DNA of 64,000 nt. Source: an uncultured Verrucomicrobiota bacterium. GTDB lineage: Bacteria > Verrucomicrobiota > Verrucomicrobiia > Opitutales > Seribacteraceae. Below the pieces are notes generated by a model. It did no database searches and was not told where the DNA came from. It was given only the letters and a program-made list of their open reading frames with translations. A program made the translations under genes and the position numbers. The stretch is from positions 1 to 64,000 of the forward strand of contig CACMBV010000006.1 in NCBI GenBank assembly GCA_902612125.1, written 5' to 3'. Of this stretch, positions 12,369 through 39,500 are shown in pieces. The stretch's first letter is position 1. Every line of letters starts with the position of its first letter.

Positions 12369-12797
12369 TTGTCAGGGCTTGATACCACTAATTTTAAAAA
12401 CGCATCAGACATCTTGACTGCACTGATGATTTGGGTTTGATTTTCATTATTAAAGTTCATCTTTCAACTTTGCCTTATTATCTGACTGCCTTTTCTGGCA
12501 GATGAAGCCTTCATCTTTGTTAACGACAATGCGTTGCTAGGTGGAGATGGAAGTTCTTGGGGTAACGCTCATAAGTATTTGCAAGTCGCTGTTTCCGCTG
12601 ATTCGATTGGTGATGAAATTCGGGTTGCGGAAGGAACCTACAAACCTGTCCGGGGCATGGGTAAGACTCCAGGAGACCTTACCGCAAGCTTTAATCTCGT
12701 AAGCGGTGTTGAAATGTATAGCGGATTTCTTGGCACAGATTTAACAACTAATATTTAAGAAAAAATAACTAGAATTACCTAAAACTAAGGAGTGTAC
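12369..12797. other. Intergenic region with gene fragment and hairpin
   Basis: This stretch holds a small inverted repeat (ctgcc ttttct ggcag, 12486-12501), the beta-helix gene fragment described separately, and the ribosome binding site of the sulfatase gene (taaggag, 12786-12792). I see no other feature in it. Confidence 0.5.
12486..12758 (+). pseudogene. Fragment of a parallel beta-helix surface protein
   Basis: The frame reads FVNDNALLGGDGSSWGNAHK, then a DEIRVAEGTYKP motif and LTASFNLVSGVEMYSGFLG. This matches the N-terminal repeat unit of secreted right-handed beta-helix proteins, usually YVD-A-x-GGDGSSWxNAFxxLQ ... GDEIRVAxGTYKP. There is no ATG, an in-frame stop lies just upstream at 12483, and the frame ends after about 90 codons, so it is a broken remnant. 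Confidence 0.55.
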
Positions 12798-15074
12798 ATG
12801 ACCGTATTCAAATTAATTGCCATTATTACTATACTGTTTTGCAACTTGGCTATTCAAGCGGGAGACAGACCAAATGTCCTCTGGATTGTCAGTGAGGATA
12901 ACGGGGTTAAATGGATCGGCTCTTATGGCGGGGTTAATGCCAAGACTCCAGCTATTGATGGTCTAGCCAAAGAAGGTTTTCGGTATACAAATTGTTTTGA
13001 TAACGCTGCTGTATGTGCGCCAACTCGTTCGACTTGGCTGACTGGAATGCTGGCAAGTTCAATCGGTACGCAACCGATGCGTAGTACTAACAGGGTTCCT
13101 GTAATGGTGAAATACTACAATGAGCAGCTGCAAAAGGCTGGATACTTCACTTCCAACTCTTCCAAAACTGATTACAATTTATCAGGTATGAAAGGAAGAG
13201 ATCCAATGCAATTTTGGGATTATCAGGGTAGAGATTGGGCAAAGCAGATCCATGATCGTAAGGACGGAAAGCCATTTTTCATCGTTGTTAATGTGGGCCA
13301 TAGTCATGAATCCCATGCTTTCCCACAAAAAAATCCACCAAGGAATGACCCGGCAAAGATGAAGTTACATTCTTATCATCCGGACATTCCTGAGATGCGT
13401 GAAACCTATGCGACCTACGCAGATGCGGTTGAGAAAATGGATGAAGATGTTGGCAAGGTCCTTGCGGAATTAAAAAGTGCTGGCCTGCATGAAGATACCA
13501 TTGTTGTCTATAATTCAGACCATGGTGGCGTTTTACCCCGTAGCAAGAGGTTTCTGTACTCCAGCGGTATTCACTGCCCCTTGATTGTTCGTATTCCGGA
13601 AAAATATAAAGATTTTTGGCCTGCTGAAAAGCCGGGAATGACAGTTGACCGCATGGTTAGTTTTGTCGATATGCCTAAGACATGGATAAGCCTTGCAGGG
13701 GGAGAAATCCCTGAAAATTATCAAGGCACCATTTTTCTTGGTAAAGATATTGAGTCAGAGCCGAAATATCACTTTGGTTTTAGGGGCAGAGCGGATGAGT
13801 GTTATGACTCCTCAAGAGTCATGCGTGGTAAACGCTATTCCTATCACAAGAACTATGCGCCTTTCGTTCCGAATGGTCAATTCCTTCCGTACATGCATAA
13901 TATGATCGCAACCCCTGCTTGGAATAAGCTTCACAAGGAGGGGAAAACTAATGCCATAACAGGGCGTTTCTTCCGTCCGCGTCCCTCTGAGGAATTTTAT
14001 GATAACGAAGTCGATTTTGATAATGTAAACAACCTTATCGATGCACCAGAACATCAGGAAAAGATTGCTGAGCTACGCGCGGCAATGCGTGCAGAAATGG
14101 TAAAAACCTATGACACAGGCTTAATGCCAGAGAGTATGCGAAATAGACGGAGGATTCTCAATAAAACGACATTTTATGAAATGGTTCGTGACCCTAACTT
14201 ATACCCGCTTGAGAAATATCTTGATACTGCAGATATTGCCTTGGCACGCAAAAGCGAAAACATGCCGACCTTAGTTGAGTACTTAAAAGATGAAGATGAG
14301 TGCATGCGTTATTGGGGTGTGATCGGTTGTTTGTTACTGGAGGAAAAAGCGGCTGCAGCGAAAGATGAGTTGGTGAAGCTTATGGATGATGAATCAATAG
14401 AAATTCCTATATTTGCGGCATGGGCTTTATATAAAATGGGTGAGAAAAAAGTAGGACTTGATAAATTGAGCTCAATTCTCCATGAGACCAACTCAGATAC
14501 TGTTGGAGGTATCCTTGATCGCATGGGAGAGGACTCAACACCGATAATAAAAGCATACGCACAGAAAAGAATGTTTGCTAATTCATACTTGAGTAAGGTC
14601 GTTCAGCGAAAGGGGCTACCGGCTCTTAACAGGGATATGCCTGTGGTTATTCCGACAGAAAGCTTCTTTACCAATGAGAACGGAGCAAAGGTAAATGGTC
14701 TTACTGGTGAATATTTCGCAACAGGTAATTTCACCGGAGATGTTAAACTTACGAGGCTTGATAAAAATATCGATTTCAAATGGAAGGAAGCTTCACCAAC
14801 AGAAGAAATTCCAGTGGACCAGTTTTCAGTTCGCTGGACAGGCAAGCTTCTTTCTAAGGATGCAGGCGGCTACATTTTTTCGGCCTTCAACTGTGATGAC
14901 GGCGCAAGATTCTGGGTTGATGGCGAGCAAATTCTCCAACACAAATTTGGCAGAATCGTGCTTGAAGCAAATAAGGAGTATGAGATTAAGTTTGAGTTCA
15001 TGGAAAACAGAGGTCTAGCTACCGCAATTCTCGAATGGATGGAGCCGGCTAATGTTCCTGTTAAATTGAAATAA
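12798..15074 (+). CDS. Exported sulfatase with C-terminal PA14 domain
   Basis: 758 residues from ATG 12798, chosen because taaggag lies 5 nt upstream; a GTG at 12792 is the alternative. A signal peptide covers about residues 1-21. The sulfatase domain (about 24-450) carries the formylglycine motif CAPTR at residues 73-77, which needs maturation by a sulfatase-modifying enzyme, plus GRPN-like N-terminal DRPNVLWIVSEDNG and the metal-binding HSHE and NSDHGG segments. A helical repeat-like middle follows, then a PA14 beta domain (about 628-755; GLTGEYFATGNF, CDDGARFWVDGEQIL), a likely carbohydrate-binding module. It probably removes sulfate from marine polysaccharides outside the cytoplasm (inference). 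It is flanked by tmRNA-type scars at 12166 and 15125. Confidence 0.92.
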   Translation: MTVFKLIAIITILFCNLAIQAGDRPNVLWIVSEDNGVKWIGSYGGVNAKTPAIDGLAKEGFRYTNCFDNAAVCAPTRSTWLTGMLASSIGTQPMRSTNRVPVMVKYYNEQLQKAGYFTSNSSKTDYNLSGMKGRDPMQFWDYQGRDWAKQIHDRKDGKPFFIVVNVGHSHESHAFPQKNPPRNDPAKMKLHSYHPDIPEMRETYATYADAVEKMDEDVGKVLAELKSAGLHEDTIVVYNSDHGGVLPRSKRFLYSSGIHCPLIVRIPEKYKDFWPAEKPGMTVDRMVSFVDMPKTWISLAGGEIPENYQGTIFLGKDIESEPKYHFGFRGRADECYDSSRVMRGKRYSYHKNYAPFVPNGQFLPYMHNMIATPAWNKLHKEGKTNAITGRFFRPRPSEEFYDNEVDFDNVNNLIDAPEHQEKIAELRAAMRAEMVKTYDTGLMPESMRNRRRILNKTTFYEMVRDPNLYPLEKYLDTADIALARKSENMPTLVEYLKDEDECMRYWGVIGCLLLEEKAAAAKDELVKLMDDESIEIPIFAAWALYKMGEKKVGLDKLSSILHETNSDTVGGILDRMGEDSTPIIKAYAQKRMFANSYLSKVVQRKGLPALNRDMPVVIPTESFFTNENGAKVNGLTGEYFATGNFTGDVKLTRLDKNIDFKWKEASPTEEIPVDQFSVRWTGKLLSKDAGGYIFSAFNCDDGARFWVDGEQILQHKFGRIVLEANKEYEIKFEFMENRGLATAILEWMEPANVPVKLK

Positions 15075-15124
15075 CTGAAAGTACGCTAATTAATTTAGGC
15101 CCAAAAGTGTCCTTGGAACTTTGG

Positions 15125-15148
15125 TGGAGGTGGAGGGGATCGAACCCG
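15125..15148. repeat. tmRNA-3'-end-like scar (site C1)
   Basis: Twenty-four bases, starting tggaggtggaggggatcgaa, differ slightly from site B at 12166-12189. The following ~60 bp also match B (aggattcagact...agaggcgttgact). B and C1 therefore bracket the sulfatase module as imperfect direct repeats about 2.96 kb apart. Confidence 0.5.
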
Positions 15149-15206
15149 AAACGCCAAGTACTAAAACCCTAGTAACTATGCAGGATTCAGACTTCTCAGT
15201 AGAGGC

Positions 15207-15381
15207 GTTGACTTAGATATTGACGAATATTTACGGCAAAACCTGTCATTTGGGGTCGCGGGTTGGCGAAATAGGTGAGAAGGGTGAAATCGCAGAAAGC
15301 CCTTTAATAGTGGGCTCTGGACGCTCATTGACGCAACCTGACGGGAGATTGCGATGGCGGGATAGACGGGACTCGAACCCG
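15207..15381. repeat. 175-bp direct repeat, left copy, containing tRNA-Asp-type att core
   Basis: This segment aligns along its whole length, without net indels, to 25462-25636. The last 27 bp (15355-15381) are identical to the 3' end of tRNA-Asp including CCA. Immediately after the core the two copies diverge: here the sequence enters a recombinase tail, at 25637 it enters the tRNA body. That is the arrangement expected of att sites made by sequential integrations at the tRNA. Confidence 0.8.
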
Positions 15382-15561
15382 AAATCGAAATGTATTCAAG
15401 TCGTTGATAATCATGATTTAAAAGAATTTACGAGAGAGCAATGGACACAGATATGGACACAGATTTCTGACGAGGATCGTCAGCAGTTGTCTCAAATTGT
15501 CCAAAGATGGGGCAGTCTCAGCGATGAGTTGAAGAGGGCGGTTTTGAGGGTTATTTCGTGA
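15382..15561 (+). pseudogene. Recombinase C-terminal tail remnant C
   Basis: The plus-strand frame is open from 15220 through the att core to the stop at 15561, 113 codons. Its end reads EDRQQLSQIVQRWGSLSDEL then KRAVLRVIS. It is the best preserved tail. The part before the core (CHLGSRVGEIGEKGE, RSLTQPDGR) matches the integrase C-terminus at 25353-25636. The last 61 bp recur at 23315-23375. The six-gene operon's final stop codon is only 5 bp beyond this end. Confidence 0.6.
15501..15561. repeat. 61-bp direct repeat, left copy
   Basis: 59 of 61 positions match 23315-23375 in the same orientation (ccaaagatggggcagtctca at the start). The two copies lie at either end of the six-gene chaperone operon, 7.8 kb apart. 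Confidence 0.85.
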
Positions 15562-15566
15562 GCCGG

Positions 15567-16121
15567 TTAAGAAAACTGCCCACCAATTTCTAAATCTAGG
15601 GCATTCAAAAGATCACTTTTAGAGACGCTCATTTTCTCCATTATTTCATTCCTTTGGGCTACATTCTCTCCAAGAAGTACTTTCAGTAAATGAAGAGAAC
15701 TTACCTTATCACCCATAGCGTTCTTTTTCGCCAACTGAACACACCCCACAGTGCACGGAGCATACTTTAAAATCTTACCCCCGTTCTCATTGGGTGTATC
15801 TGATATACGAATTTGTTCACGATAGATCTTTCGGAACGAACGGGCATCCACTTTGCCAAGAGAATATATTTTCCTCAACTTTGTGTTTTCAGTCAGCATA
15901 GAAACCAAAAGCGGATCACGCTGTAAAAGTGGTAGACCAAAATCAATAGTCGCCAAATCCACATCAACTGATTTTAGAATCGCCAAGAAAAGGTGAGACT
16001 TTTCAGTGGATGAAGCTCCTACTTGTCTAGCCTCAAAATCAGCTATTTTTAATAAATAAGATCCAAGGGGTGTTAATTCAGGAAAACTTTCCGGATCTTT
16101 CCAATCATTGAGAAAATTCAT
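15567..16121 (-). CDS. ClpN-like repeat domain protein
   Basis: 184 residues. Two segments resemble the Clp N-terminal repeat used by ClpA/ClpB/ClpC to bind substrates or adaptors: about 17-65 (TPLGSYLLKIADFEARQVGA, EKSHLFLAIL) and about 118-172 (KYAPCTVGCVQLAKKNAMGD, SSLHLLKVLLGE, ending in a helix like VSKSDLLNAL). There is no AAA+ domain, so it is not an unfoldase and could be a substrate- or partner-binding module. It is the last gene of the operon and overlaps the TerB-like gene by 4 nt (ATGA). Domain assignment is by eye. Confidence 0.6.
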   Translation of the reverse strand: MNFLNDWKDPESFPELTPLGSYLLKIADFEARQVGASSTEKSHLFLAILKSVDVDLATIDFGLPLLQRDPLLVSMLTENTKLRKIYSLGKVDARSFRKIYREQIRISDTPNENGGKILKYAPCTVGCVQLAKKNAMGDKVSSLHLLKVLLGENVAQRNEIMEKMSVSKSDLLNALDLEIGGQFS

Positions 16122-16642
16122 TCTGAATCAGATTCATCACTCTTAAATTCCTTAAAAGTTATGTGTTCAAAATTCTCAATCTTAGGAGCTTCAAATTCTT
16201 TTACCTCCGCACTCGTGTTGTAAGTTTGTTGTTCTGACAGTCCCAGCAGATTTCTTATGGAGCCAAATCGCTGCTCTAGCAGCTCAGGAAGGATTCCAAG
16301 AATAGAGATTATCTTGTTTAGATACATGATCTCATTCTCATCAATTCTGCCATCTGCATAGACAACACGGATCACAACCTCCACCACTTGTATTTGATCT
16401 GACAATTCCAGGTTTGCGGACTGGACTTCAGAGAAGAATTTCCTAAAGGATTCTCTGGTACTTTGCTGAAGTTCTTCTGATAAACGCTTCAATTCGGAAT
16501 TCAGGTCAAGCTCTGCGAATATCTTGGACTTTTCGGAGAGTGTACGGATGGAATCCAATTCGTCCTGATGAAGTTCCCCGTCACAAGTCATGGCATGAAA
16601 TGCGGCACTGAGAAGTAATTTTCTGTAATCTAAATCAATCAT
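16118..16642 (-). CDS. TerB-like domain protein
   Basis: 174 residues, soluble and all-helical. Two acidic helix-loop motifs of the TerB/DjlA type are visible: AAFHAMTCDGELHQDELDSI (about 13-32) and VVYADGRIDENEIMYLNKI (about 93-111). In TerB domains these DG-x-x-x-x-E segments form a metal site. The C-terminal 45 residues are charged and poorly conserved-looking. TerB domains are known from tellurite-resistance loci and from several bacterial stress or defence gene sets; no terC or terD gene is here, so the tellurite label is not used. It overlaps the kinase gene by 8 nt and the ClpN-like gene by 4 nt. Confidence 0.7.
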   Translation of the reverse strand: MIDLDYRKLLLSAAFHAMTCDGELHQDELDSIRTLSEKSKIFAELDLNSELKRLSEELQQSTRESFRKFFSEVQSANLELSDQIQVVEVVIRVVYADGRIDENEIMYLNKIISILGILPELLEQRFGSIRNLLGLSEQQTYNTSAEVKEFEAPKIENFEHITFKEFKSDESDSE

Positions 16643-17516
16643 TTTGGTGTGTTCTGGAGGGTAATTGTTTTAGTGCTTCAAGAAATTCTCCTGCATTGCG
16701 AAATCTTTTGGAAAGATCCTTTTCCAACGAAAGCATGACGATTTCATCCAGTTGCTCAGATACATTAGCATTATATGCACTTGGTTTTGAAACTTGATTC
16801 TTGCGGGATGAAAGAACCTGACTACTCACATCCGCATAGGAATGACAGGTGGAGTAGGAGCACTGCCATGGATAAACCCCAGTAAGCATTCGGTAGAGAA
16901 CCATTCCTGAGGAAAACACATCGCTTGAAGGGAGGTAGGAACCAAAAAAACATTCCGGAGCCATAAACCCATATCTGCCTGCGGATGTATTACTCCATGA
17001 AACTTCATCAGAAATAGCTGCCAATCCAAAGTCAGCGAGTAATGCTTTGGTACTGCCCTTAGAATAGCTCAGAATGATATTGTCGTCATTAATGTCACGG
17101 TGAACAATGGGAGAATTCCTGTCATGTGCGTAGGATAGTCCAGCAAGGCAGTCCTTCTGTATCTCCATGGCCAGATCTAAGTCCAGAGGACTTTTTCTTT
17201 CAACCAGACTTGATAAGCTTTCGCCTGAGATGAATTCCATGGTCAGGTAATACCTTTCCTGCTCTCCATCATTGAAAGAATTTGCCTCAAAAACACGAAC
17301 GACATTCGGGTGGGAGAGCCCTGCAAGAATCCTTGCCTCGCTGATTACTCCTGCAAAAATTTGCTCGTTTACAATTTCCGCCTTGAGAAGCTTCAGCACC
17401 TGATTGCCCAGATGTTTGTGCTCAACGCGATAAACTTCTCCAAATGCACCCGCTCCGACTCTCGTCTTAATGGTGTATGTGTCATTAATGACAAAGCCTT
17501 TGGAAAGACTGCTCAC
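16635..17516 (-). CDS. Soluble Hanks-type Ser/Thr protein kinase
   Basis: 293 residues forming one kinase domain with no membrane segment or extra sensor domain. Motifs: Gly-rich loop GAGAFGEVY (21-29), ATP-binding Lys at 42, catalytic loop HRDINDDN (139-146), DFG at 162-164, MAPECF (186-191). The catalytic Asp is present, but the usual Lys of HRDLKPEN is Asn, a variant seen in some bacterial kinases. Activity is therefore likely but unproven. It is 5 nt downstream of the Hsp70 gene and overlaps the TerB-like gene by 8 nt, so the Hsp70, GrpE-like or TerB-like proteins are the natural candidate substrates (inference). Confidence 0.9.
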   Translation of the reverse strand: MSSLSKGFVINDTYTIKTRVGAGAFGEVYRVEHKHLGNQVLKLLKAEIVNEQIFAGVISEARILAGLSHPNVVRVFEANSFNDGEQERYYLTMEFISGESLSSLVERKSPLDLDLAMEIQKDCLAGLSYAHDRNSPIVHRDINDDNIILSYSKGSTKALLADFGLAAISDEVSWSNTSAGRYGFMAPECFFGSYLPSSDVFSSGMVLYRMLTGVYPWQCSYSTCHSYADVSSQVLSSRKNQVSKPSAYNANVSEQLDEIVMLSLEKDLSKRFRNAGEFLEALKQLPSRTHQND

Positions 17517-17521
17517 TTAAA

Positions 17522-20038
17522 TTATAATGCAGTTACATCCGCACCACCGGGAGTAGCTATTGCTGATGGATCCTGCATTTGGCGATTTATCTCCTGATGG
17601 TGTTCCATGAGATTTTCAAGTTCTGGATTCTCCCTAATAGCATTTCGGGCATTATCAACAGCTATTCTGGCCTGAGTGGAGTTCTTCCATTCTATTTCAT
17701 CAAACTTTTGATGGGTCTGCTCAATAAGATAGACCCAAAAACCAGGTTGCTCACGAAGATAGGAAAAGCCGGCAGATCTCATTTCACTAGCTAACTGCAT
17801 GGCAAGTTTTGTATCTCTTCGCTCCTTGATTAGCAGAACCTGTTTTTCAAATTCATTGCTTAACGCATGATCATCACCACCATAATTGGACTCAAGCTCC
17901 ACAAGCCCACTCAAGGCTCTGTTCAATTCATCCTCCGCCCTTGGCCATTCGGCATCGTCCTCCATTTTATCAATCTTTGCCCATACCTTCTTTAATGAGT
18001 CTTTGGCCCTTTCTCTCTGATCTTCATCATCCTGCTGGTTCAACCCTGTTTCGATACTTTTCAATTCATCTAAGACGCCTTCAGCTAAATCAGGGAGGTC
18101 ATCCCCAAGTGTTAGCTTTGTCTTTGCCTTACTAATCCGATGCCTAACTTCTTCAGAGGAAAGAATAACCTTTTTTGTTTTCGTTTCAAACTCAACAGTC
18201 TCATCAAAGCTACTCAAAAAGGCTTCCCCTGTAATATTCATTGATTCATCAACACGAACCACTAGTTCTACTTCGCTCCCCTTAGGTAAGAATCCTGGAA
18301 TGTCATCAGCGTCGATTGTAACCTTTGCGAGTGTTTCAAAAGCTTCTGTTCGTGTCCCTTCTTTGTCCTCAGCCTCTCCCTGAAGGAACTCAAAGGTCAG
18401 ACTGTCATCATCCGCTGGATTTATATCTTTTGTTGTGCCAAGGGAAATCTTACCTTTGGCTGGCATAGTGACATTTCTTTCCAATCCTGGAATAGTTTTA
18501 AAGACTGAATCCTTATCAGCGGTCGCCACTGCAACACCCAAAGAGTAAGCCATAGGGGCATTACCTATTTTCATGCCTTGAAGAATACTAATACTTGCGG
18601 GCTCACTCTGTATCCGGTTTCCGGCTTCATCAAAAAGACTGATGGAGAAAACATTCTGCTTTCCCTGATTGAGATTAACCATGACGACATCCGCATCATT
18701 TTGCATTTCGCTTCTTGGGCTTTGCCAGCTGCCATCCTGGTTTGCCATCTCTACAAATATTTTACCCGGTAATTCTCTTTCTGTGGCATCCCTGTTAAGC
18801 ACAATTGCCACTGGTTCTTCCTCTTCCACTGAAGTGTCCGGGCACTCAATATCCAGTTGGGCCTTAGCCATATCTCTTTGCTGAAAATCAGCAGGGAGCT
18901 TTTTGGTGGATGCAAATATACCAGCACCGACTCCGACTGCTGTCATTGGGTCAGTACTTGTATCAACTTCAGTTCCTGAAAATGCATTTCTAATTTTTGC
19001 ACAAAATAAATGAGAAAGGGTAGGGCCTCCAACCAAAATTACTTTTAGCAAATCTGAACTTTGCATATCATTTCTCCTGACAAGGTTGGATGCTATGGCA
19101 ATAGCCTTGTCAAACCACGGCCCAACAGCTTGATCATAGGAAGAAAACGGAATCTCAAGCTCTAAAATTATTTCATTACCGTCGTCGTCTTCTCCAAGTT
19201 CTTCTTGCCATGCCTTGTAGCTTGTGCAGTCCTTATTGGAGAAAGCAATTTTTACATTTTCAGCCGTTCTTTTCAGAGCATCTTTCAGAAGTGACGAATA
19301 TCCTTCATTGGAAACCTTATTTTGAATTGGGAAGTTTTCACAAATATGAGGAAACAAAATTTCATTTACAATTGCATCGTCCAAGTTCTTGCCTCCCAGC
19401 AAATTATCACCCTCCGTGTCCTTTACCGTAATAACTCCTTCTTCAACCTCCATAAGGGCGGCATCAAAAGTTCCACCCCCAAAATCAAAAACCAACCACT
19501 TGCCTTCAATATCTTTTCCACTCAAACCATAGGCTACTGAGGCGGCAATGGGCTCTTGTAAAAGCTCGCAATAGGAAAATCCTGCTTTTTCAGCAGCATT
19601 TCTTGTTGCTTCATTTTGTGGATTTGTAAACTTAGCCGGAACTGTAATCACAACTCCTGGAATCACATCTTCATCCTTAACATAGCTTTTCAGTTTTTTG
19701 AGAACTTCAGCGGATAAGTCTTCGGGTGTAAGCGAGCGATCAAGATGGACTGAAGGCTGAACCTGATCGGTCCCCATTAATCTTTTAAATTCAGAGAAAG
19801 CATCAGAGACAGTTGCATTAGGGTTTTGGTTCTTTTTGTTACGAGCTCTCTCCAACTCCCTGTATGCATCGTCTCCTACCAAGATAGCCCCAGAGCGGTT
19901 TACCGCAACGCATGAAGGAGTGGTGTCTTTTTGTGAACCATCACTTTTAATGATCTTCGCATTACCCGCGTCCATACGGGCAATGGCTGAATTGGTGGTT
20001 CCTAAATCTATTCCGTAATCAATATTCGTTCTTTTCAT
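17522..20038 (-). CDS. Hsp70 (DnaK-like) chaperone with linker-region insertion
   Basis: 838 residues against about 600-640 for housekeeping DnaK. The nucleotide-binding domain (about 5-381) is well kept: DYGIDLGTTNSAIA (7-20), VVITVPAKFTNPQ (129-141), FDFGGGTFDAAL (184-195), ILVGGPTLSHL (334-344). The canonical hydrophobic DVLLLDV-type linker is not recognisable. Instead about 100 extra residues (395-492; acidic start VEEEEP, beta-strand-like) precede the substrate-binding beta domain (about 494-620; YSLGVAVATADKDSVFKTIP, TFEFLQGE). A long helical lid (about 625-830) ends in PGGADVTAL. The gene is 12 nt after the GrpE-like gene and 5 nt before the kinase gene. Predicted: specialised chaperone for a membrane-linked pathway. 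Confidence 0.93.
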   Translation of the reverse strand: MKRTNIDYGIDLGTTNSAIARMDAGNAKIIKSDGSQKDTTPSCVAVNRSGAILVGDDAYRELERARNKKNQNPNATVSDAFSEFKRLMGTDQVQPSVHLDRSLTPEDLSAEVLKKLKSYVKDEDVIPGVVITVPAKFTNPQNEATRNAAEKAGFSYCELLQEPIAASVAYGLSGKDIEGKWLVFDFGGGTFDAALMEVEEGVITVKDTEGDNLLGGKNLDDAIVNEILFPHICENFPIQNKVSNEGYSSLLKDALKRTAENVKIAFSNKDCTSYKAWQEELGEDDDGNEIILELEIPFSSYDQAVGPWFDKAIAIASNLVRRNDMQSSDLLKVILVGGPTLSHLFCAKIRNAFSGTEVDTSTDPMTAVGVGAGIFASTKKLPADFQQRDMAKAQLDIECPDTSVEEEEPVAIVLNRDATERELPGKIFVEMANQDGSWQSPRSEMQNDADVVMVNLNQGKQNVFSISLFDEAGNRIQSEPASISILQGMKIGNAPMAYSLGVAVATADKDSVFKTIPGLERNVTMPAKGKISLGTTKDINPADDDSLTFEFLQGEAEDKEGTRTEAFETLAKVTIDADDIPGFLPKGSEVELVVRVDESMNITGEAFLSSFDETVEFETKTKKVILSSEEVRHRISKAKTKLTLGDDLPDLAEGVLDELKSIETGLNQQDDEDQRERAKDSLKKVWAKIDKMEDDAEWPRAEDELNRALSGLVELESNYGGDDHALSNEFEKQVLLIKERRDTKLAMQLASEMRSAGFSYLREQPGFWVYLIEQTHQKFDEIEWKNSTQARIAVDNARNAIRENPELENLMEHHQEINRQMQDPSAIATPGGADVTAL

Positions 20039-20050
20039 GATGTAATAACT

Positions 20051-21193
20051 TTATTCGCACTCGCTTACCTCAACTTCGCCCCGTTGGATCAGCTTGTCGT
20101 TGTGAAAAATGGAAGGTTTGTAAACTCGAGTAATGGTTGGAGTCTCATGCGCCGGGTCTTTACTTGGGATAAAGCGAGCTTCGTAATTCTTGCCCTCCAC
20201 ATATTTTGCACCGATCAACTTTTCTCGTTCATATCCTAGTTCAGAAAGGGTTTCCTCTAATCGCTCCAGAGCCTTCATCATAGGCTTCCTGTTCTTATCG
20301 CTCTCATCGTATTTGGTCAATCTGGCTTCTATCCTTTCGATTTCATTGAAAACAGCCAGCTGGAGAGTATGTGGCTTTTCCTCTTTTGACTTTGAAGCTG
20401 AGAGAGAAACTGATGCTTTGCCCTCATCATCAGATTGAATTTTCTCCAGAGTCGAAGTAAGTTTTTCCCAAGTTTTTTGATCAAGAGTGCTTAACGCAGT
20501 TGAAAGATTGTCAGTCTTTGATCTCAGGTGCCTAATTTCACTCTGTGAGAAAATTAATTTTATAACTATTGCAGCACAAAGCGTGATCAATAGAAACCCT
20601 TTCCAATCAAATGAGTTCAACTCTTCACTAAGACTTTCCTGCTTTTCAGAAAGTCTCTGAATTAAAGATGAGGAGTTTTTCTCTGCCCTTAAAACTTGAG
20701 CGGATGCGAATTCCTGAGCCTCCTCTTTTGCTAGTCTGATTTCAGCTAAAAGTGAGCGATTATTATCAGAAATTTTGCTATTCAACGAAATCAGTTTTTC
20801 TTCAACATCTTTGCTCAAAGATTTCAGGTCGTTCTTGTATTTCAAACTTTCTTTTTCTAATTCCTTTTCTCTTAGTGAAAGCTCTTGGGTAAGAGTATTT
20901 AATTGGTCACGGATAGACTTATTTGTTTCAGCTAAGCTAGATTCCAAGTATTCAGCTTGTTTCTCAATTTTTCCCGAAAAACTTTTATTTTGATCGCTAA
21001 TTAACTCTCTAATTTCCACTTCAATGGAATTTAGTTTTTGGAGGTAATTATTATTGGTGGTAACAACTTGTTTTTTAATTATCTCAATTTCATCTTGTAA
21101 ATTAATATTTGGAGAAGATGAGTTAGAATCGTTGTTCTCCTGTGCCGTGGCCCCCAACAGGAATGCAAAGAATGCTATTACGGTGAACTTCAT
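20051..21193 (-). CDS. Membrane protein: extracytoplasmic coiled coil, TM, GrpE-like domain
   Basis: 380 residues from ATG 21193, chosen because it overlaps the upstream stop as ATGA; the frame could start at 21208. Parts: signal peptide (1-17, cleavage after ATA), a long coiled coil (about 30-192), one membrane helix (about 198-216; FLLITLCAAIVIKLIF), a charged linker (about 217-275), and a C-terminal domain (about 278-380). The latter looks like the distal helix and beta-wing of GrpE: LERLEETLSELGYE, then a G-x-x-Y/F-x-x-x-x-xEA-like GKNYEARFIPSKD and a final strand DKLIQRGEVEVSE. By topology the coiled coil is outside the cytoplasm and the GrpE-like part inside, next to the Hsp70 encoded 12 nt downstream. 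GrpE assignment is by eye. Confidence 0.65.
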   Translation of the reverse strand: MKFTVIAFFAFLLGATAQENNDSNSSSPNINLQDEIEIIKKQVVTTNNNYLQKLNSIEVEIRELISDQNKSFSGKIEKQAEYLESSLAETNKSIRDQLNTLTQELSLREKELEKESLKYKNDLKSLSKDVEEKLISLNSKISDNNRSLLAEIRLAKEEAQEFASAQVLRAEKNSSSLIQRLSEKQESLSEELNSFDWKGFLLITLCAAIVIKLIFSQSEIRHLRSKTDNLSTALSTLDQKTWEKLTSTLEKIQSDDEGKASVSLSASKSKEEKPHTLQLAVFNEIERIEARLTKYDESDKNRKPMMKALERLEETLSELGYEREKLIGAKYVEGKNYEARFIPSKDPAHETPTITRVYKPSIFHNDKLIQRGEVEVSECE

Positions 21194-23145
21194 TTCCCTG
21201 AAATACATTTTATGATTTTATTTAGCAGATACCTGATTGGTTTGTGAACGAATGGGATATCCTTGGTTAGACTAACGAATGGTGGTGATACAAAGTAATA
21301 GGTTTTTATGAAAATTCTACCAAAGAGATGCTGTTTCAGTTTTTGGTCACGATAGTTTTGTAAAATCATCACTTCAGGGCAGTCATACGAACCGTAAACC
21401 ATAGTGGCAATGTAGCAACCTGAGGAAGCTTTCCTCTCAGCTTCAGATGCAGCATAAGCATTTGATGAAAGAATTGTCATGTTTCTATTGAAGTAATCTC
21501 TGACTTGACCGCTCATTTCAAGTTGCTTGATTACATTCATTACTTTTACCGCTTCGTTGTACACTGAGGCACTGTGACTACTCTCATTGCAACATTGGAC
21601 GCAAATACTTGTGGCAACAGAAGCAACCCAGTCCGAAACCTTTATGTAAACCTCATAACTATTCAAAATCTTCTTTGCCTCTTCAATTTTAGGAATACAA
21701 TTCCGAACTAAATTTTGAGCAGCACTTAGCGTGGCTGTCCTTTCAGCTCTCTCAATATTTGACTTAATAGACTCTGCCAATTCAGTAGCTTTTTTCCCGC
21801 TCTCCCTCTGATCTTTATTTTCTATCCAATCTTCAAGGAATTCTTTATCTTCCCTCAATTTCTTACCTGTTCCGCCCTCAGAATACAGAGCAAGAGCCTC
21901 GTTTACCAACTTCAGGCAATCATCACCAGGATCAAAAGAAGGAGATGCTTCACTTGCATAGTTAAAATATGTCAAAGAACCTTGACGCAGTTGCGATGCT
22001 ACTTCATTGCACAACCCCTTATACTTCAAATCATCTTTACCCAAAATTTCTGAGAGAAGTTTTAGATTGTTTTTTGTAGCACTTAAGAGGTTGTTGGCTG
22101 ATTTTAAAGCTTCAGCGGGTTCCTCTGCAGAGGTTCTCTTTGCGTTCTCCACCTCTGTTTCAACAAGAGCAATTTCCTTTTTTGTAAACTTTGATTTTAC
22201 CGAATCAACAGCGGCCTTGGGGAAATGCTCAAAATATTCGATAAACTTGTTTAAAGTTATGTTAGATTTATCGAGAAACTCACTAAGTGAATTCACGACA
22301 TGATCGGCAAAATCTTTCGTATGGTAGTGACTATCAGGATTCTTTTTTGGTTCCACCGGAAGCGAATCGAGATAGGTGTCAAGATATTCACTAGAGAAAA
22401 ACTTACCGGCCAGACTGAGACTATCCCTTAATGATTGTTCAGACAAATTTCCACTGTTTCCGGCATTTGCCAAACGATAAAGGCTTAAGTTTCTTGCTGA
22501 TGAAAAGTTAGATTTACTGACGGATTTATCTTTGCAGACCCTCTCCCAAATTTCGCTCGCTCTTCCCTCGTCTTTTTTCTCAATTGCATCAAAAGCCATC
22601 TTGTCGATGGCAGATCCTTCCCAAAACCAGAAAATGGATGATCTTATTCTTCTTTCAGGCTGATCGATATCTGACTTGGCCTGCTCAAGCAGATCCATGG
22701 AAACACTAGGACTAAAAGGTAAGCCGTAATCAGATTTCGGTGACAAAGGTTTACCCACTTTGGCAAAAGCTTTTGCCTTGGTTAATGACTTTTCGATTTC
22801 TCTTTTTGTTGCAGTTACCGGGATATCCAGCAAGCGAAATGGATTTTCATTTATCCAGGGAAGTTTGAGGATGGAATTTTTTGAAATTTTTGTTTCCTCA
22901 GAATTTTTAGATGTTTCGCTACTGCTACTTTTAGGGATGGTAGCTGTAGATGCACTCCCCTTATTGCTGAAATCTTCTTTGAATTCCGTAAAAGAGCTCG
23001 CAACCACCCAATTTTTGGATGCAGTGAACATCCAGTCGCTAGACTTAATTTCACCCTTTTGTATTAGCTCCGATATCTTTTCAGCATCAAATGGACCAAG
23101 GGTGTCCATATCTTTTGAATAAAAATACTTTTCTGCTTCTGGCAT
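21190..23145 (-). CDS. GYF_2 / J-like / CFI-box C-terminal protein
   Basis: 651 residues from ATG 23145; an in-frame TTG at 23172 is possible, but the GYF_2 domain begins right after the ATG. GYF_2 (about 1-50; LGPFDAEKISELIQKGEIKS) is followed by a Ser/Thr-rich linker and then a J-domain-like helical segment (about 95-180; NPFRLLDIPVTATKREIEKS, RRIRSSIFWFW) that lacks the HPD tripeptide. A long helical middle follows. The C-terminus (about 570-651) is a CFI-box-type domain: GCYIATMVYGSYDCPEV then a basic helix region. It is the first gene of the six-gene operon. A co-chaperone or scaffold that recruits clients to the Hsp70 is inferred. Confidence 0.75.
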   Translation of the reverse strand: MPEAEKYFYSKDMDTLGPFDAEKISELIQKGEIKSSDWMFTASKNWVVASSFTEFKEDFSNKGSASTATIPKSSSSETSKNSEETKISKNSILKLPWINENPFRLLDIPVTATKREIEKSLTKAKAFAKVGKPLSPKSDYGLPFSPSVSMDLLEQAKSDIDQPERRIRSSIFWFWEGSAIDKMAFDAIEKKDEGRASEIWERVCKDKSVSKSNFSSARNLSLYRLANAGNSGNLSEQSLRDSLSLAGKFFSSEYLDTYLDSLPVEPKKNPDSHYHTKDFADHVVNSLSEFLDKSNITLNKFIEYFEHFPKAAVDSVKSKFTKKEIALVETEVENAKRTSAEEPAEALKSANNLLSATKNNLKLLSEILGKDDLKYKGLCNEVASQLRQGSLTYFNYASEASPSFDPGDDCLKLVNEALALYSEGGTGKKLREDKEFLEDWIENKDQRESGKKATELAESIKSNIERAERTATLSAAQNLVRNCIPKIEEAKKILNSYEVYIKVSDWVASVATSICVQCCNESSHSASVYNEAVKVMNVIKQLEMSGQVRDYFNRNMTILSSNAYAASEAERKASSGCYIATMVYGSYDCPEVMILQNYRDQKLKQHLFGRIFIKTYYFVSPPFVSLTKDIPFVHKPIRYLLNKIIKCISGK

Positions 23146-23251
23146 AGGGGGTATATATCGGATAAAATACAATCGCTGTTCCGATCAAGCATTTATTTTA
23201 CACTATTTAATGAAAATTCGGTTTTTACATATTTTTGTTACATACATTACA

Positions 23252-23314: not shown

Positions 23315-23375
23315 CCAAAGATGGGGCAGTCTCAGCGACGAGTTGAAGAAGGCGGTTTTGAGGGTTATTTCGTGA
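23315..23375. repeat. 61-bp direct repeat, right copy (recombinase tail remnant D)
   Basis: Matches 15501-15561 at 59 of 61 positions, same orientation. It encodes only the last ~20 codons of the recombinase tail and stops with the same tga. Upstream the resemblance ends at once, so this copy is a pure fragment. Confidence 0.85.
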
Positions 23376-23516
23376 ACAGGAGTTAATGTAACTTCAATCA
23401 GCCCAGTCAACCTGTGCCTTGACTGTGTATCTCAAAAGTTAGAGTTGAAGCCATCAGGATTTAGTTAGACAGTTAAATAACAGATAAATACAGTTATTGC
23501 TTGGAAGATAGAAGAA

Positions 23517-25118
23517 ATGAAAGCAAAAACTCCTAAACAGCGAAAAAATGATTGGGATGCATTCTTCAAAGGAGACATTGATCCTAATGAGATTCCAACT
23601 AGGGAACTTATAATATCATTACTCACTGAAAAGAGTAATATTAAAGATAAACAAAGGGTTAGAGATGAAATTGAAGACAAAACTGAAAAATTCATTTCTG
23701 AAGCAAGAAAAGTTTGGCCAAAAGAAGAATTTAATTACTCACACACAGTTTTTTATGGAAGAGGAATAATCGTAATTCATAAAGATTTTGGGCCTGCATG
23801 GCAAAGACCTGAGGCACATCTTAAAAAGGTATTTCCATTCGGGAATAAAGCCTTTCCTCTGAGAAAAGAAATGGAGATCGTCCTGCTCAACAAGAGTGGA
23901 TTAAGTACCATAAAATTGGCCAAAAAATTTGGTACATCTGATGCAACTATATCTAATATTTTAAAAAGACATAATCAAAAACCTAAAGGCTCCAAAATTG
24001 TTAATGATGAGATTGAAAAACTGATCGTGAATATGTGGGACAAGGGTGAGGTACTTAGTGAAATTAAAAAAGTAACTACTTTATCACACGGGACTATTTA
24101 TAAAGTACTAGATAAAAACAGTAGACTTAGACAGGGCCAAAGACAGAAAAAAGAGAGATTAAATAGGCGAATAATTCCTCCGGAGATTGAAAAAGAATTA
24201 GTAAAAAAATACAAATCTGACAGCCAACCGACTGCAGCCTATTTAGCAAAAGAGTATAATTATTCTGATGACTTAGTCCTTGATTGCCTTAAGAGAAACA
24301 AAGTGAAAATTCGTCCAAATTGCAAAATAACTGAAGACGAATTCAAGAAAATTATTGATCGTTATGAGCAAGGTGAAAGCTCTTACCAATTGTCAAAAGA
24401 CTTTGGTGTCGCTCCAAGTTCAATAACATCAAGACTGCACAGGAATAAACAAGAAGTAAGGGGATCTCTTGATTATAAAAATACCATAAACCATCAAGAA
24501 ATCCCCAAAATCATAGATTTGTATACCAAAGCTAATCTTGGTTCTTCCTCTATTGCGGACTTACTAGGTTATGGAAAAAAGCAAATATTAGATGTCTTAA
24601 ATGAAAACAGAATCAAGACAGACAGAGCACCCTCATTCTACAGTAGGTACAATAACGAATCTGAAAGAAAATTAATCAAAAGTCTAAGAGGAGGGCTAGA
24701 GAAATTATACAAAAATAGTAAGAAGAATGACATAAGTCTTTCTCTTACAGAAAAAGCTCGTGAATTCGTTGGTTGTTCACCAAGTCAACTCCTGGAACAT
24801 TTAGAGGAGACTAAACCAGATTGCGATGAAGACACGATTTTACACTTGGATCACATAATTCCCATTTCGGCATTTGCTAGATTTATTAATGACGAAGAAA
24901 AGCTGAAAGTTTCATGCCATTACCAGAATCTTCAATTATTAACCAAGGATGATAACGAGTCCAAGAATGACTCAATGGAAATTGGTCTCGAGATGTTGAT
25001 GAAAAAAGAAATTAAGGACGAAAGTGTTTACGAATTACTTATTGAAATAGCAGAAAAGGAAATAAGAAATAAACAAAAGATCATTTCAGATATTTTGGAG
25101 AAACATTCACTCAGCTAA
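23517..25118 (+). CDS. HNH endonuclease with five HTH units
   Basis: 533 residues. After an unassigned N-terminal 110 residues come five successive helix-turn-helix units of about 45-50 residues, e.g. TIKLAKKFGTSDATISNIL (~129-147), LSHGTIYKVL, AYLAKEYNYSDDLVLDCL, SYQLSKDFGVAPSSITSRL and SSIADLLGYGKKQILDVL. An HNH nuclease domain of the phage and intron-associated type ends the protein: GCSPSQLLEHLE (~419), LHLDHIIPISAF (~440-451), CHYQNLQLL ... DDN (~463-477). A stand-alone homing-type or island-protecting nuclease is plausible. Codon and base use are clearly more AT-rich than the neighbours, suggesting recent transfer. A terminator hairpin follows at 25152-25185. Confidence 0.8.
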   Translation: MKAKTPKQRKNDWDAFFKGDIDPNEIPTRELIISLLTEKSNIKDKQRVRDEIEDKTEKFISEARKVWPKEEFNYSHTVFYGRGIIVIHKDFGPAWQRPEAHLKKVFPFGNKAFPLRKEMEIVLLNKSGLSTIKLAKKFGTSDATISNILKRHNQKPKGSKIVNDEIEKLIVNMWDKGEVLSEIKKVTTLSHGTIYKVLDKNSRLRQGQRQKKERLNRRIIPPEIEKELVKKYKSDSQPTAAYLAKEYNYSDDLVLDCLKRNKVKIRPNCKITEDEFKKIIDRYEQGESSYQLSKDFGVAPSSITSRLHRNKQEVRGSLDYKNTINHQEIPKIIDLYTKANLGSSSIADLLGYGKKQILDVLNENRIKTDRAPSFYSRYNNESERKLIKSLRGGLEKLYKNSKKNDISLSLTEKAREFVGCSPSQLLEHLEETKPDCDEDTILHLDHIIPISAFARFINDEEKLKVSCHYQNLQLLTKDDNESKNDSMEIGLEMLMKKEIKDESVYELLIEIAEKEIRNKQKIISDILEKHSLS

Positions 25119-25356: not shown

Positions 25357-25686
<330 letters not shown>

Positions 25687-36580: not shown

Positions 36581-39500
36581 ATGAATAAGAAGCTATTTTC
36601 TTGTTTAATTTTTCTTTATATCAATGTTCTTCATTGGTCCTCTTTTGTTCAGGCTAGTGTATATCCTTACTTCACTGAAATTAATGACCCCAATGGATCC
36701 TATCAGTTTTTCGAAAACCAATATTATAAATTTACCACTACGAGTCGTAATCTGTTCATAAGTGGACAAGTAAATTCGGATGCAAATTTGAGTGAAGTCT
36801 TTCCTTCGAGGCAGGTTTCCAGCAATGAATATTTACTCTTCAACGCCTCGAATAATTCTCCCAGAATGAATTATTATTTCGATCCTGATGATCTTGATTT
36901 CAATGGTTCAATTGCAGTGATTCCTTATCTAGAGCAGGGGCCTGTAGTTTCCACATCATTGGCTTCAGAAGATTATTTTGGATACGAGTTGGCAATTAAT
37001 GATTGGAATGAAACTATCGTTAGCGCACCTAGCAAAAATTCGAATCATGGTAGTATCTATGTTTTTGAATATAATGCAAGTAACCAACTTGTTCAGAAGA
37101 GTATGCTTCAACCTATTTCTGGTGATGAAGGGTGGTGGGGGACCTGTCTTCAAACTTCAGGAGATTTACTTTTCATTGGAGCACCAAATGCAGCTTTGAA
37201 TGCAGGTAAAGTACTTATGTACAAAAGGATAAATGGAACTTATACAAAGCAAACTGAACTTGCAGACCCACGCACAGGAATAACACAATTTTTCGGTTCT
37301 TCCATTTCATTTGGAGCTAACCAAGAAAAGCTAATTGTTTCTCCCAATGTCGAGGGGAGTGATAGGGCTGGCCGGGTTGAGATATTTAATTTGGATACAT
37401 CAGGAAACTTGACCCATGCCCAAACCCTTTGGTCAGATGATAATGTTTCGGGAAATTATTTTGGGATTGATCATGCCTTGAATAAAGATTTTCTCCTGAT
37501 TGGTGCTCCTGAAGAGAATAATAGATATGGTCGTGCCTATGTATTTGATCGGGAGAATGACGGGAGCTGGTCAAGTAACCCTGTAAGCTTAGCTCCAAGT
37601 TCTTTATCCTGGAATGACCAATTCGGATACACTGTGGAGATTAGTCAAGACTTTGCATTTGTTGGAGCCAAGCAAGGAGATGGAAATGTAACTGACTCGG
37701 GGGTTGTTTATATTTTTAATAGGCAAAATTCATCATGGGTTGAAACGGCCAAATTAATTCCGCCCATTGGAGATAGTAATCAGACATTTTCGGCAGCCCT
37801 TGAAGCCTTGGATGATTTAATCATCGTGGGTTCAATTGGAGTAGGGAGCGAGGGAATGGCTTATGTTTACAAAATGCATGAAGGAAATGCGAGTGATTGG
37901 CGTTTGATTTCAACTATAGATAACAACGGATCTTCGACTACGAACAGGAATTTTTTATCCATCACTGCCCATGAGGGAATTATCGCAGTTGGCAGCCCGG
38001 AGGATTCAAGCACTCTTTTAGACGGGGGTTCCTTTAAAATTTTTAGCAATCCAGGATGGCAGCAGCAAAACCCAATGCCCTTGGACCCCTTGTTTGTTTC
38101 CAGTCCTTCCTCAACCATAAATATCCTAGAGGATTCATCAAGTGGTGCATCCTACGCCTTTCGAGTGGAACATCCATTTGAAAATAATTTTACCTGGAAT
38201 GTCTCTTCGGATAATGCAGGGGCGAATACTTTTTCGATTTCCACGGAAGGTAATTTCACTTATCTGCCTGAGGGGAACTTTAGCGGAGTAAAGAACTTTT
38301 CCATTGAAGTTAATTCCATCAACGGGCAGTCCATTCGCTCGTTTCAGGTTAATGTCGTATCTCAAACTGATGCTCCTGTTTTTGACTACAATCAATCGCA
38401 TGAGCTTCAATCAATTTGGATAGGAGAGGATACAAATCAGGCAATCCAAGTATTCGATGCTGATTATGATACACTCACGATAACCGCAAATTCTTTACCA
38501 AGTGGGTTACTTATTTCAGGTCACTCAATCCAAGGAAAAATAACTGACGATGGATTACTCAATGGTGCGTCTTTTAAGGATTTTCAAATTGAACTTAATG
38601 TTTCTGACGGGACACCTGAAACTGTGGACGCATCTAAACTGTTTAATTTGAGAGTATATTCGAGAAATTCTGCACCCTATTTTACCGACGAGAATGGCAC
38701 TCTGGTTACAAGCAGGAATGTCACTTTGAATGAAGACTTTTCTATCTCCGACTGGGCACAAGCTTTGGGTCAATTAAGGTTTGGGGACGATCACACTCAG
38801 AATGGGTTTACCCTTACATTAGAAACAGCTCCGACTAATGGAGTTGTTCAACTGGATCCTTTATCCTCCACACCTGTTGTTTATTCATCAAACGAGAATT
38901 ATTTTGGAACCGATGTTTTCTCCGTTGCCCTCCACGATGATAACAACCCTTCGAAGTCCGTTGTCTTGCCCTTAAATGTTATCATTAATCCAATAAATGA
39001 TGCTCCGGTTTTATCGTCTTCCATTAATGTTCAGGCAAACGAAGGCATTCCTTTCAGTTATAATATTGCATGGACAGATGTTGATCATGGTTCCGGTCAT
39101 ATTGTCACGGTCTCAGATATACCGGGATGGATCACCTATGATAATTTAAATCATACCATTCAAGGAACCCCACTATGGGCAGATTACAAAGAAGAGCCAT
39201 ATTCTGTAATAGTTAAAATTGAGGATCCCGCGGGTGCGTCGAGCTCTTATTCAGTTAAAATTGAAATTATACCCCAGAATTATCCGCCTAAATTTAATCA
39301 GGGTGATTTGTCTCTCTCTATCGCAGAGGACACACAACTGAACATTCCCCTCACTGCCTATGATCAAGATTTGGTTGATGGTTTGGTTACTTGGAGTATT
39401 TTAACCAATTCATCGCACGGAGTAAGTTCAATCTCTGCAAATGACTACCAATGCTTCGTTGAGTATAAACCTGATGCGAACTATACGGGAAGCGATTTTT

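What the first reader, a model, noticed from the sequence alone, without database searches (positions are those of the whole stretch)
15567..23145. Six-gene membrane-coupled Hsp70/kinase operon (candidate undescribed system)
In transcription order the minus strand encodes GYF_2/J-like/CFI-box, signal-coiled coil-TM-GrpE-like, Hsp70 with an inserted domain, Ser/Thr kinase, TerB-like and ClpN-like proteins. Overlaps are 4, 8 and 4 nt and gaps 12 and 5 nt, so it is one unit. It contains a possible complete chaperone triad (J-like, GrpE-like, Hsp70), each divergent from the housekeeping forms, plus a signalling kinase and two adaptor-like domains. It sits inside an island between recombinase scars. 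I know of no named system with this set. Hypothesis: an envelope signal alters the GrpE-like domain, which resets the Hsp70 and the kinase output, as a stress or anti-phage response.
Basis: partly seen in the sequence, partly recalled or inferred. Interest (0 to 1): 0.92.

Follow-up and report, generated by a model that had tools for sequence, protein, structure and literature searches.

The report
Envelope-anchored Hsp70 machine on mobile islands
A tRNA-flanked genomic island carries one copy of a widespread but apparently undescribed gene set that builds a second protein-remodelling (Hsp70) machine tied to the cell envelope, and its relatives in many phyla often sit beside anti-virus genes, so it may be a new branch of bacterial defence or envelope quality control.

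Summary
The six-gene operon is real: coordinates, overlaps and gaps are as stated. It lies in a roughly 10-kb island flanked by a duplicated tRNA-Asp 3' end. It is not a one-off. In 80 related loci from at least eight phyla the same order recurs: J-like solenoid, membrane GrpE, Hsp70, kinase-CDC48-like ATPase, TerB. GrpE-like lies upstream of Hsp70 in 75 of 80, kinase/AAA downstream in 68, and all five genes occur in 44. The GrpE assignment is settled by structure: the top 13 Foldseek hits are all GrpE, Z 9.8. The Hsp70 has a ~100-residue insert between ATPase and SBD-beta. The J assignment is weak (22 columns, HPD motif in 0 of 62), as is ClpN (below Pfam cut-off). This copy has lost the AAA+ half, keeps canonical kinase motifs and has gained the ClpN-like gene. 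Genes beside the relatives match 197 PADLOC models, against 4 for random genes. No description was found in the papers held. I read it as an envelope-tethered Hsp70 machine, probably used in conflict with phages or mobile elements. Function is inferred, not shown.

The parts
21190..23145 (-). Gene 1: N-terminal GYF_2-like segment (subthreshold), NPFRLL J-like remnant, alpha-solenoid, CFI-box C-terminus (651 aa; TTG start at 23172 also possible)
   Evidence: NF041770 70.9 bits; AF2 model pLDDT 86; family in 68 of 80 loci; no HPD
20051..21193 (-). Gene 2: signal-like N-terminus, ~155-residue coiled coil, TM helix, cytoplasmic GrpE head (380 aa from ATG 21193; ORF opens at 21208)
   Evidence: AF2; Foldseek top 13 all GrpE; Z 9.8 to 1dkg_B over residues 274-384; TM 200-225
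17522..20038 (-). Gene 3: Hsp70, 838 aa, NBD + ~100-aa insert + SBD-beta + divergent C-terminus
16635..17516 (-). Gene 4: Ser/Thr kinase, 293 aa, orthologous to the kinase half of kinase-CDC48-like fusions (46-47% to L014-L019); AAA+ half absent
16118..16642 (-). Gene 5: TerB-domain protein
   Evidence: Pfam TerB 1.6e-12; DjlA model 1e-5; TerB in 49 of 80 loci
15567..16121 (-). Gene 6: possible double Clp_N-like protein (subthreshold; not found in the other loci)
   Evidence: 15.9 bits, cut-off 20.7; found in the window only; no PDB hit
15206..15381 (.). Left flank repeat; its right end copies the 3' end of tRNA-Asp
25461..25636 (.). Right flank repeat, 87% identical, ending inside tRNA-Asp
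25610..25686 (-). tRNA-Asp (gtc), presumed insertion site
15501..15566 (.). 66-nt repeat, left copy (94% to the copy at 23315-23380); abuts the end of gene 6
23315..23380 (.). 66-nt repeat, right copy, upstream of gene 1; with the left copy it brackets the operon

Best explanation
It is a mobile, accessory Hsp70 machine anchored to the cell envelope. Gene 2 places a GrpE-type exchange head on the cytoplasmic face of the inner membrane, joined through one TM helix to a long coiled coil on the other side. The dedicated Hsp70 works there, with the J-like solenoid protein as client or partner adaptor. In most relatives a CDC48-like AAA+ ATPase fused to a kinase or kinase-like domain pulls apart or extracts the Hsp70 clients; TerB acts as a small membrane-near helper. 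In this copy the AAA+ half is lost. The kinase, which keeps its HRD and DFG motifs, is retained as a switch, and a Clp_N-like adaptor may borrow the host ClpB/ClpC-type ATPases. The most likely use is conflict: remodelling or disarming an invader's protein, or relaying damage, at the membrane. Shown: gene set, recurrence, GrpE fold, Hsp70 architecture, TM segment, island, mobile and defence context. Inferred: topology, client, AAA+ substitution, biological role.
For: Conserved order in 80 loci; intergenic gaps between GrpE-like and Hsp70 mostly 2-36 nt. GrpE fold. Hsp70 family forms a separate clade from DnaK (100) with phyla intermixed, and 11 of 11 tested carrier genomes also have housekeeping DnaK, DnaJ and GrpE, so it is a second machine. 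Envelope anchoring recurs by a different route: in distant Gammaproteobacterial and Aminobacter operons GrpE is small and soluble and a PG_binding_1 TM protein, or the J-like protein fused to PG-binding domains, takes its place. AAA+ half is CDC48-like, 1e-53 to 1e-56. Patchy: 3 of 289 genomes in its phylum, 6 of 296 in the phylum of G292. Defence neighbours: Type I R, GajA, PbeA, DrmD, HmaC, Cas1, LmuB against 4 models for random genes; BREX next to the Haliscomenobacter plasmid copy; Tn7-like cargo in Shewanella and Aeromonas.
Against: No experiment. The J-like subunit lacks HPD, so a normal Hsp70 cycle is not assured. No effector nuclease, NADase or pore is fixed in the operon. Many loci have no recognised defence gene close by. 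The AAA+ loss in this copy could mean decay. ClpN is subthreshold. Periplasmic orientation is predicted only.
Confidence: 0.55

Rival explanations
1. A horizontally moved envelope protein-quality-control island, comparable in role to TLPQC/LHR: it protects membrane or secreted proteins under heat, oxidative or envelope stress; defence neighbours merely share the same islands.
For: All identified parts are chaperone-type; TLPQC shows that mobile proteostasis islands exist, insert at tRNA genes and duplicate core functions (PMC7685784). TerB plus Hsp70 plus membrane anchor resembles DjlA, a membrane co-chaperone that feeds the Rcs envelope response (PMC11709261).
Against: Defence-gene enrichment; very patchy spread; TLPQC core genes sHsp20 and ClpG are not among the six genes.
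Confidence: 0.3
2. A signalling switch: an envelope cue changes the GrpE head, the Hsp70 state shifts, and the kinase phosphorylates targets.
For: Window kinase has HRD/DFG/APE and a GAFGEV loop; GrpE head is physically linked across the membrane.
Against: Among the 68 fusions compared only 5 show HRD; HNE and HND dominate and DFG is lost in some. Distant operons have AAA+ without a kinase. So kinase output is not conserved.
Confidence: 0.12
3. This copy is a decaying remnant: the AAA+ half was lost, the island is flanked by partial repeats, and no integrase was recognised.
For: No AAA+ partner in the island; the other strong AAA match in the 64%-complete genome lies in a 685-aa frame elsewhere, probably FtsH; repeats at the edges; long Hsp70 branch.
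Against: All six frames are intact, with tight overlaps and gaps and catalytic kinase motifs; the extra downstream gene overlaps TerB by 4 nt.
Confidence: 0.15

Closest known systems
DnaK-DnaJ-GrpE housekeeping machine
   Same: Hsp70 NBD, SBD-beta and GrpE head are homologous
   Different: GrpE is membrane-anchored on a coiled coil; ~100-aa insert between NBD and SBD-beta; J-like protein without HPD; AAA+/kinase and TerB in the operon; carriers tested keep their own DnaK, DnaJ and GrpE
DjlA-DnaK-Rcs (Escherichia coli)
   Same: Membrane-anchored Hsp70 co-chaperone containing a TerB domain, linked to envelope signalling (PMC11709261); the window TerB weakly hits the DjlA model (1e-5)
   Different: The anchor here carries GrpE, not a J domain; the Hsp70 is dedicated; no Rcs genes in the operon
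GAP1-N2 GTPase conflict systems, HSP70-GrpE-DnaJ theme (Kaur et al. 2020, PMC7159879)
   Same: HSP70 with GrpE and a DnaJ- or TPR-type protein in a predicted conflict system near the membrane
   Different: Those are centred on DO-GTPase, GAP1 and FNIII proteins; no such domain turned up in the six genes here
CoCoNuT type IV restriction (Bell et al. 2024, PMC11090510)
   Same: Hsp70-like units and, in some, CDC48-like ATPases and Ser/Thr kinases in defence operons
   Different: There Hsp70 is fused to McrB/McrC homologues, with nucleases; none are in this operon
TLPQC/LHR mobile proteostasis islands (PMC7685784)
   Same: Mobile, tRNA-inserted chaperone islands that add copies of core functions
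   Different: Core is dna-sHsp20-ClpG; no Hsp70 operon with anchored GrpE in what I read
ClpB-DnaK bichaperone
   Same: Idea of Hsp70 handing clients to a AAA+ unfoldase
   Different: The AAA+ here is CDC48-like and fused to a kinase domain; in the window it is missing

Membership tests
Hsp70 (DnaK superfamily) | ATPase NBD with DLGTTNS, phosphate and adenosine motifs | tested here: met
   Pfam HSP70 1.4e-59; motifs conserved in the alignments
Hsp70 (DnaK superfamily) | Substrate-binding beta domain | tested here: met
   hhalign to DnaK 390-482, E 3.6e-8
Hsp70 (DnaK superfamily) | Short interdomain linker joining NBD directly to SBD-beta | tested here: not met
   ~100-aa family-wide insert with no DnaK match
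GrpE nucleotide exchange factor | GrpE head fold | tested here: met
   Foldseek top 13 all GrpE, best 4.6e-6; Z 9.8, rmsd 3.6, 105 aligned to 1dkg_B
GrpE nucleotide exchange factor | Pfam GrpE above gathering score | tested here: not met
   Window domain E 0.082, 13.0 bits, cut-off 25.8; 10 of 56 full-length family members hit it, best 7e-7
GrpE nucleotide exchange factor | Accelerates ADP release from its Hsp70 | not testable with these tools
   needs biochemistry
J-domain proteins | HPD motif | tested here: not met
   0 of 62 family members with the NPYR-type start
J-domain proteins | J fold | tested here: inconclusive
   22-column match to DnaJ helices I-II, E 1.3e-4; whole-protein fold search dominated by solenoids
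Clp_N (Hsp100 N-domain) | Pfam Clp_N above gathering score | tested here: not met
   15.9 bits, cut-off 20.7
TerB | Pfam TerB above gathering score | tested here: met
   48.2 bits, cut-off 24.4
Active Ser/Thr kinase | Lys, HRD and DFG motifs | tested here: met
   window IVHRDINDDNI and LADFGLAA; activity not shown
Known PADLOC defence systems | System-defining proteins other than generic kinases | tested here: not met
   Only generic kinase models hit the operon convincingly
CoCoNuT | McrB NxD GTPase and McrC homologue | tested here: not met
   no such match in the six genes

The most novel reading that the evidence does not exclude
A previously unnamed, phylum-crossing immune system in which an envelope-tethered Hsp70-GrpE-CDC48-like machine, not a nuclease, is the antiviral effector: it captures and unfolds phage or plasmid proteins at the membrane during entry or assembly.
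Probability: 0.35. Interest if true: 0.93.

Novelty: new variant of a known kind. Interest (0 to 1): 0.8.

Why it matters
Bacterial chaperones are known as host factors that phages exploit and, recently, as a route by which an immune protein senses infection (DnaJ and bNACHT25, PMC12169576). A dedicated, mobile Hsp70 machine whose exchange factor is built into the envelope would be a new way to use protein remodelling, either as immunity or as envelope quality control. It also offers a testable module: a membrane-anchored GrpE, an Hsp70 with a domain in the linker, and a kinase-CDC48-like ATPase fusion, found in culturable Bacteroidota, with more distant forms in Shewanella, Aeromonas and Pseudomonas.

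Tried and rejected
CoCoNuT and GAP1-N2 systems: read and rejected as the same thing, because McrB/C, GTPase and FNIII parts are absent. Known PADLOC system: only generic kinase hits. J domain: no HPD in 62 members; fold search showed only solenoids, so left open. ClpN in relatives: found only in the window; no PDB hit. GrpE by sequence against PDB: failed, the full-length profile caught only coiled coils and the domain profile gave no GrpE; settled by structure instead. Phage origin: 39 phage records match the Hsp70 but none over 80% of its length; those listed match the NBD only. A separate AAA+ partner elsewhere in the genome: one other strong AAA match, in a 685-aa frame, probably FtsH, with the genome only 64% complete. 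Key 2012 Ter review (PMC4104200) is not held, so prior mention of this operon there cannot be excluded. Searches for membrane-anchored GrpE and CFI-box returned nothing relevant. Not done: a structure of Hsp70's insert or of ClpN (prediction cap reached), and a per-protein defence count.

Full report
What is there. The minus strand from 23145 to 15567 carries six intact genes with the stated spacing. Pfam confirms Hsp70 (1.4e-59), a Ser/Thr kinase (8.9e-41) and TerB (1.6e-12); NCBIfam confirms the CFI-box C-terminus of gene 1. GYF_2 and Clp_N are below their cut-offs.

The island. A 176-nt repeat (87%) lies at 15206-15381 and 25461-25636. Its right end is the 3' end of the tRNA-Asp at 25610-25686, copied at the left flank. 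A 66-nt repeat at 15501-15566 and 23315-23380 brackets the operon. This fits insertion at a tRNA gene, with a nested unit that is the operon itself. G+C is 0.401 inside, 0.466 to the left and 0.421 to the right. No integrase was recognised in the island.

It recurs. A tblastn search of plasmids found a 38%-identical, 98%-covering Hsp70 on a Haliscomenobacter plasmid, with CFI-box protein, coiled-coil protein, Hsp70, AAA ATPase and TerB in the same order, next to BREX genes and, further upstream, a SIR2 protein. A scan of 84,980 genomes gave 347 relatives, of which the best 80 are held. Among these, GrpE-like lies upstream of Hsp70 in 75, J-like in 68, kinase/AAA downstream in 68, TerB in 49, and all five in 44, with many contigs truncated. 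The set is patchy: 3 of 289 genomes in its own phylum and 6 of 296 in the phylum of G292. In the Hsp70 tree the family is separate from DnaK and phyla are intermixed; the window branch is long and its place uncertain. All 11 carrier genomes tested also have housekeeping DnaK, DnaJ and GrpE.

Anatomy. Gene 2 modelled with 56 sequences has a long coiled coil, a TM helix and a confident C-terminal domain, pLDDT mostly above 90. Foldseek's first 13 hits are all GrpE chains, best 4.6e-6, and VIA-align gives Z 9.8 to E. coli GrpE over 274-384, well above unrelated rows near 5-7. The GrpE assignment therefore holds although the sequence is too divergent for Pfam in the window copy. The Hsp70 SBD-beta aligns to DnaK 390-482, while the preceding ~100 residues match nothing in DnaK, so the inserted domain sits where the allosteric linker should be. 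The J-like protein has an NPFRLL motif, matches DnaJ over 22 columns only, and lacks HPD in all 62 relatives checked; its body is an alpha-solenoid. Canonical J activity is therefore not supported.

The kinase and the missing AAA+. In the relatives gene 4 is a fusion of a kinase domain to a CDC48-like AAA+ domain. The window kinase is 46-47% identical to the kinase half of five such fusions among L014-L019, so it is a shortened orthologue. Most fusions have HNE or HND in place of HRD, so kinase catalysis is not a general feature; the window copy is canonical. The only other strong AAA match in its 64%-complete genome lies in a 685-aa frame on another contig, probably FtsH, while ClpB/ClpC-sized Clp_N proteins exist elsewhere. 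The ClpN-like gene 6, if real, could be an adaptor to those; this is inference.

Envelope anchoring by two routes. In distant operons (Shewanella, Aeromonas, Vibrio, Aminobacter) the GrpE-like protein is small and soluble. A TM protein with PG_binding_1 is present instead, or the J-like protein itself is fused to PG-binding domains. That the tether persists while its carrier changes is, to me, the strongest hint that envelope attachment matters. The small GrpE-like proteins were assigned by sequence similarity and position, not by structure.

Context. For 129 genes within two positions of the operon in the loci with enough flank, 197 PADLOC models matched at E 1e-12 or better, with full-length Type I R, PbeA and GajA hits plus HmaC-, DrmD-, Cas1- and LmuB-type proteins. 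For 129 random genes from 11 of the same genomes the number was 4, best 2e-26. The tool counts models, not proteins, and the control set holds fewer residues, so I claim enrichment but not a precise ratio. In Bacteroidota a ~228-aa lipoprotein and a DUF6804 protein are further frequent neighbours.

Mechanism. Best supported: a second, mobile Hsp70 machine that works at the inner membrane, in most members coupled to a CDC48-like unfoldase, and probably serving conflict with phages or mobile elements. Main rival: envelope protein quality control, with TLPQC and DjlA as precedents.

Novelty. No named system with this set was found in ten searches of the held literature, nor in PADLOC or NCBIfam. 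Related but different: GAP1-N2 HSP70 theme, CoCoNuT, DjlA, TLPQC. I file it as a new variant of the Hsp70-machine kind, with a real chance that it is a new immune system.

Noticed in passing
window 23517-25118 (+): 533-aa protein with several HTH repeats (CRISPR-repeat-binding Cbp1-like model 3.9e-13) and an HNH-like C-terminus, divergent from the operon inside the island; no relative in the 80 loci.
   Followed up: partly
window ~15123-15150: Second tRNA-3'-end-like fragment (GGAGGTGGAGGGGATCGAACCC) just left of the island, suggesting tandem or nested insertions.
   Followed up: no
L033, L035, L036, L042, L046, L048, L050, L052, L055, L058, L086: A ~220-235-aa lipoprotein-like protein (CESEAERK start, coiled coil, conserved C-terminus) sits between Hsp70 and the kinase-AAA gene in Bacteroidota.
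   Followed up: no
neighbouring genes of the operon in Bacteroidota loci: DUF6804 small protein in 9 of 129 neighbouring genes; possible extra subunit.
   Followed up: no
KIN+AAA proteins of the 80 loci: Most have HNE or HND in place of HRD, a possible family of atypical kinases fused to CDC48-like ATPases.
   Followed up: partly
L008, L011: Hsp70 operon carried beside Tns genes of Tn7-like elements in Shewanella and Aeromonas plasmids.
   Followed up: partly
window 36581-46276 (+): 3231-aa giant surface-type protein with Big_9, cadherin-like, putative Ig and FG-GAP repeats.
   Followed up: no
window 12792-15074 (+): Sulfatase with HEAT repeats and a C-terminal PA14 domain directly left of the island.
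   Followed up: no
G289 (Desulfonema magnum, genome of L020): 17 Hsp70-type matches and 7 GrpE-type matches in one genome, several embedded in long ORFs; an unusual expansion.
   Followed up: no
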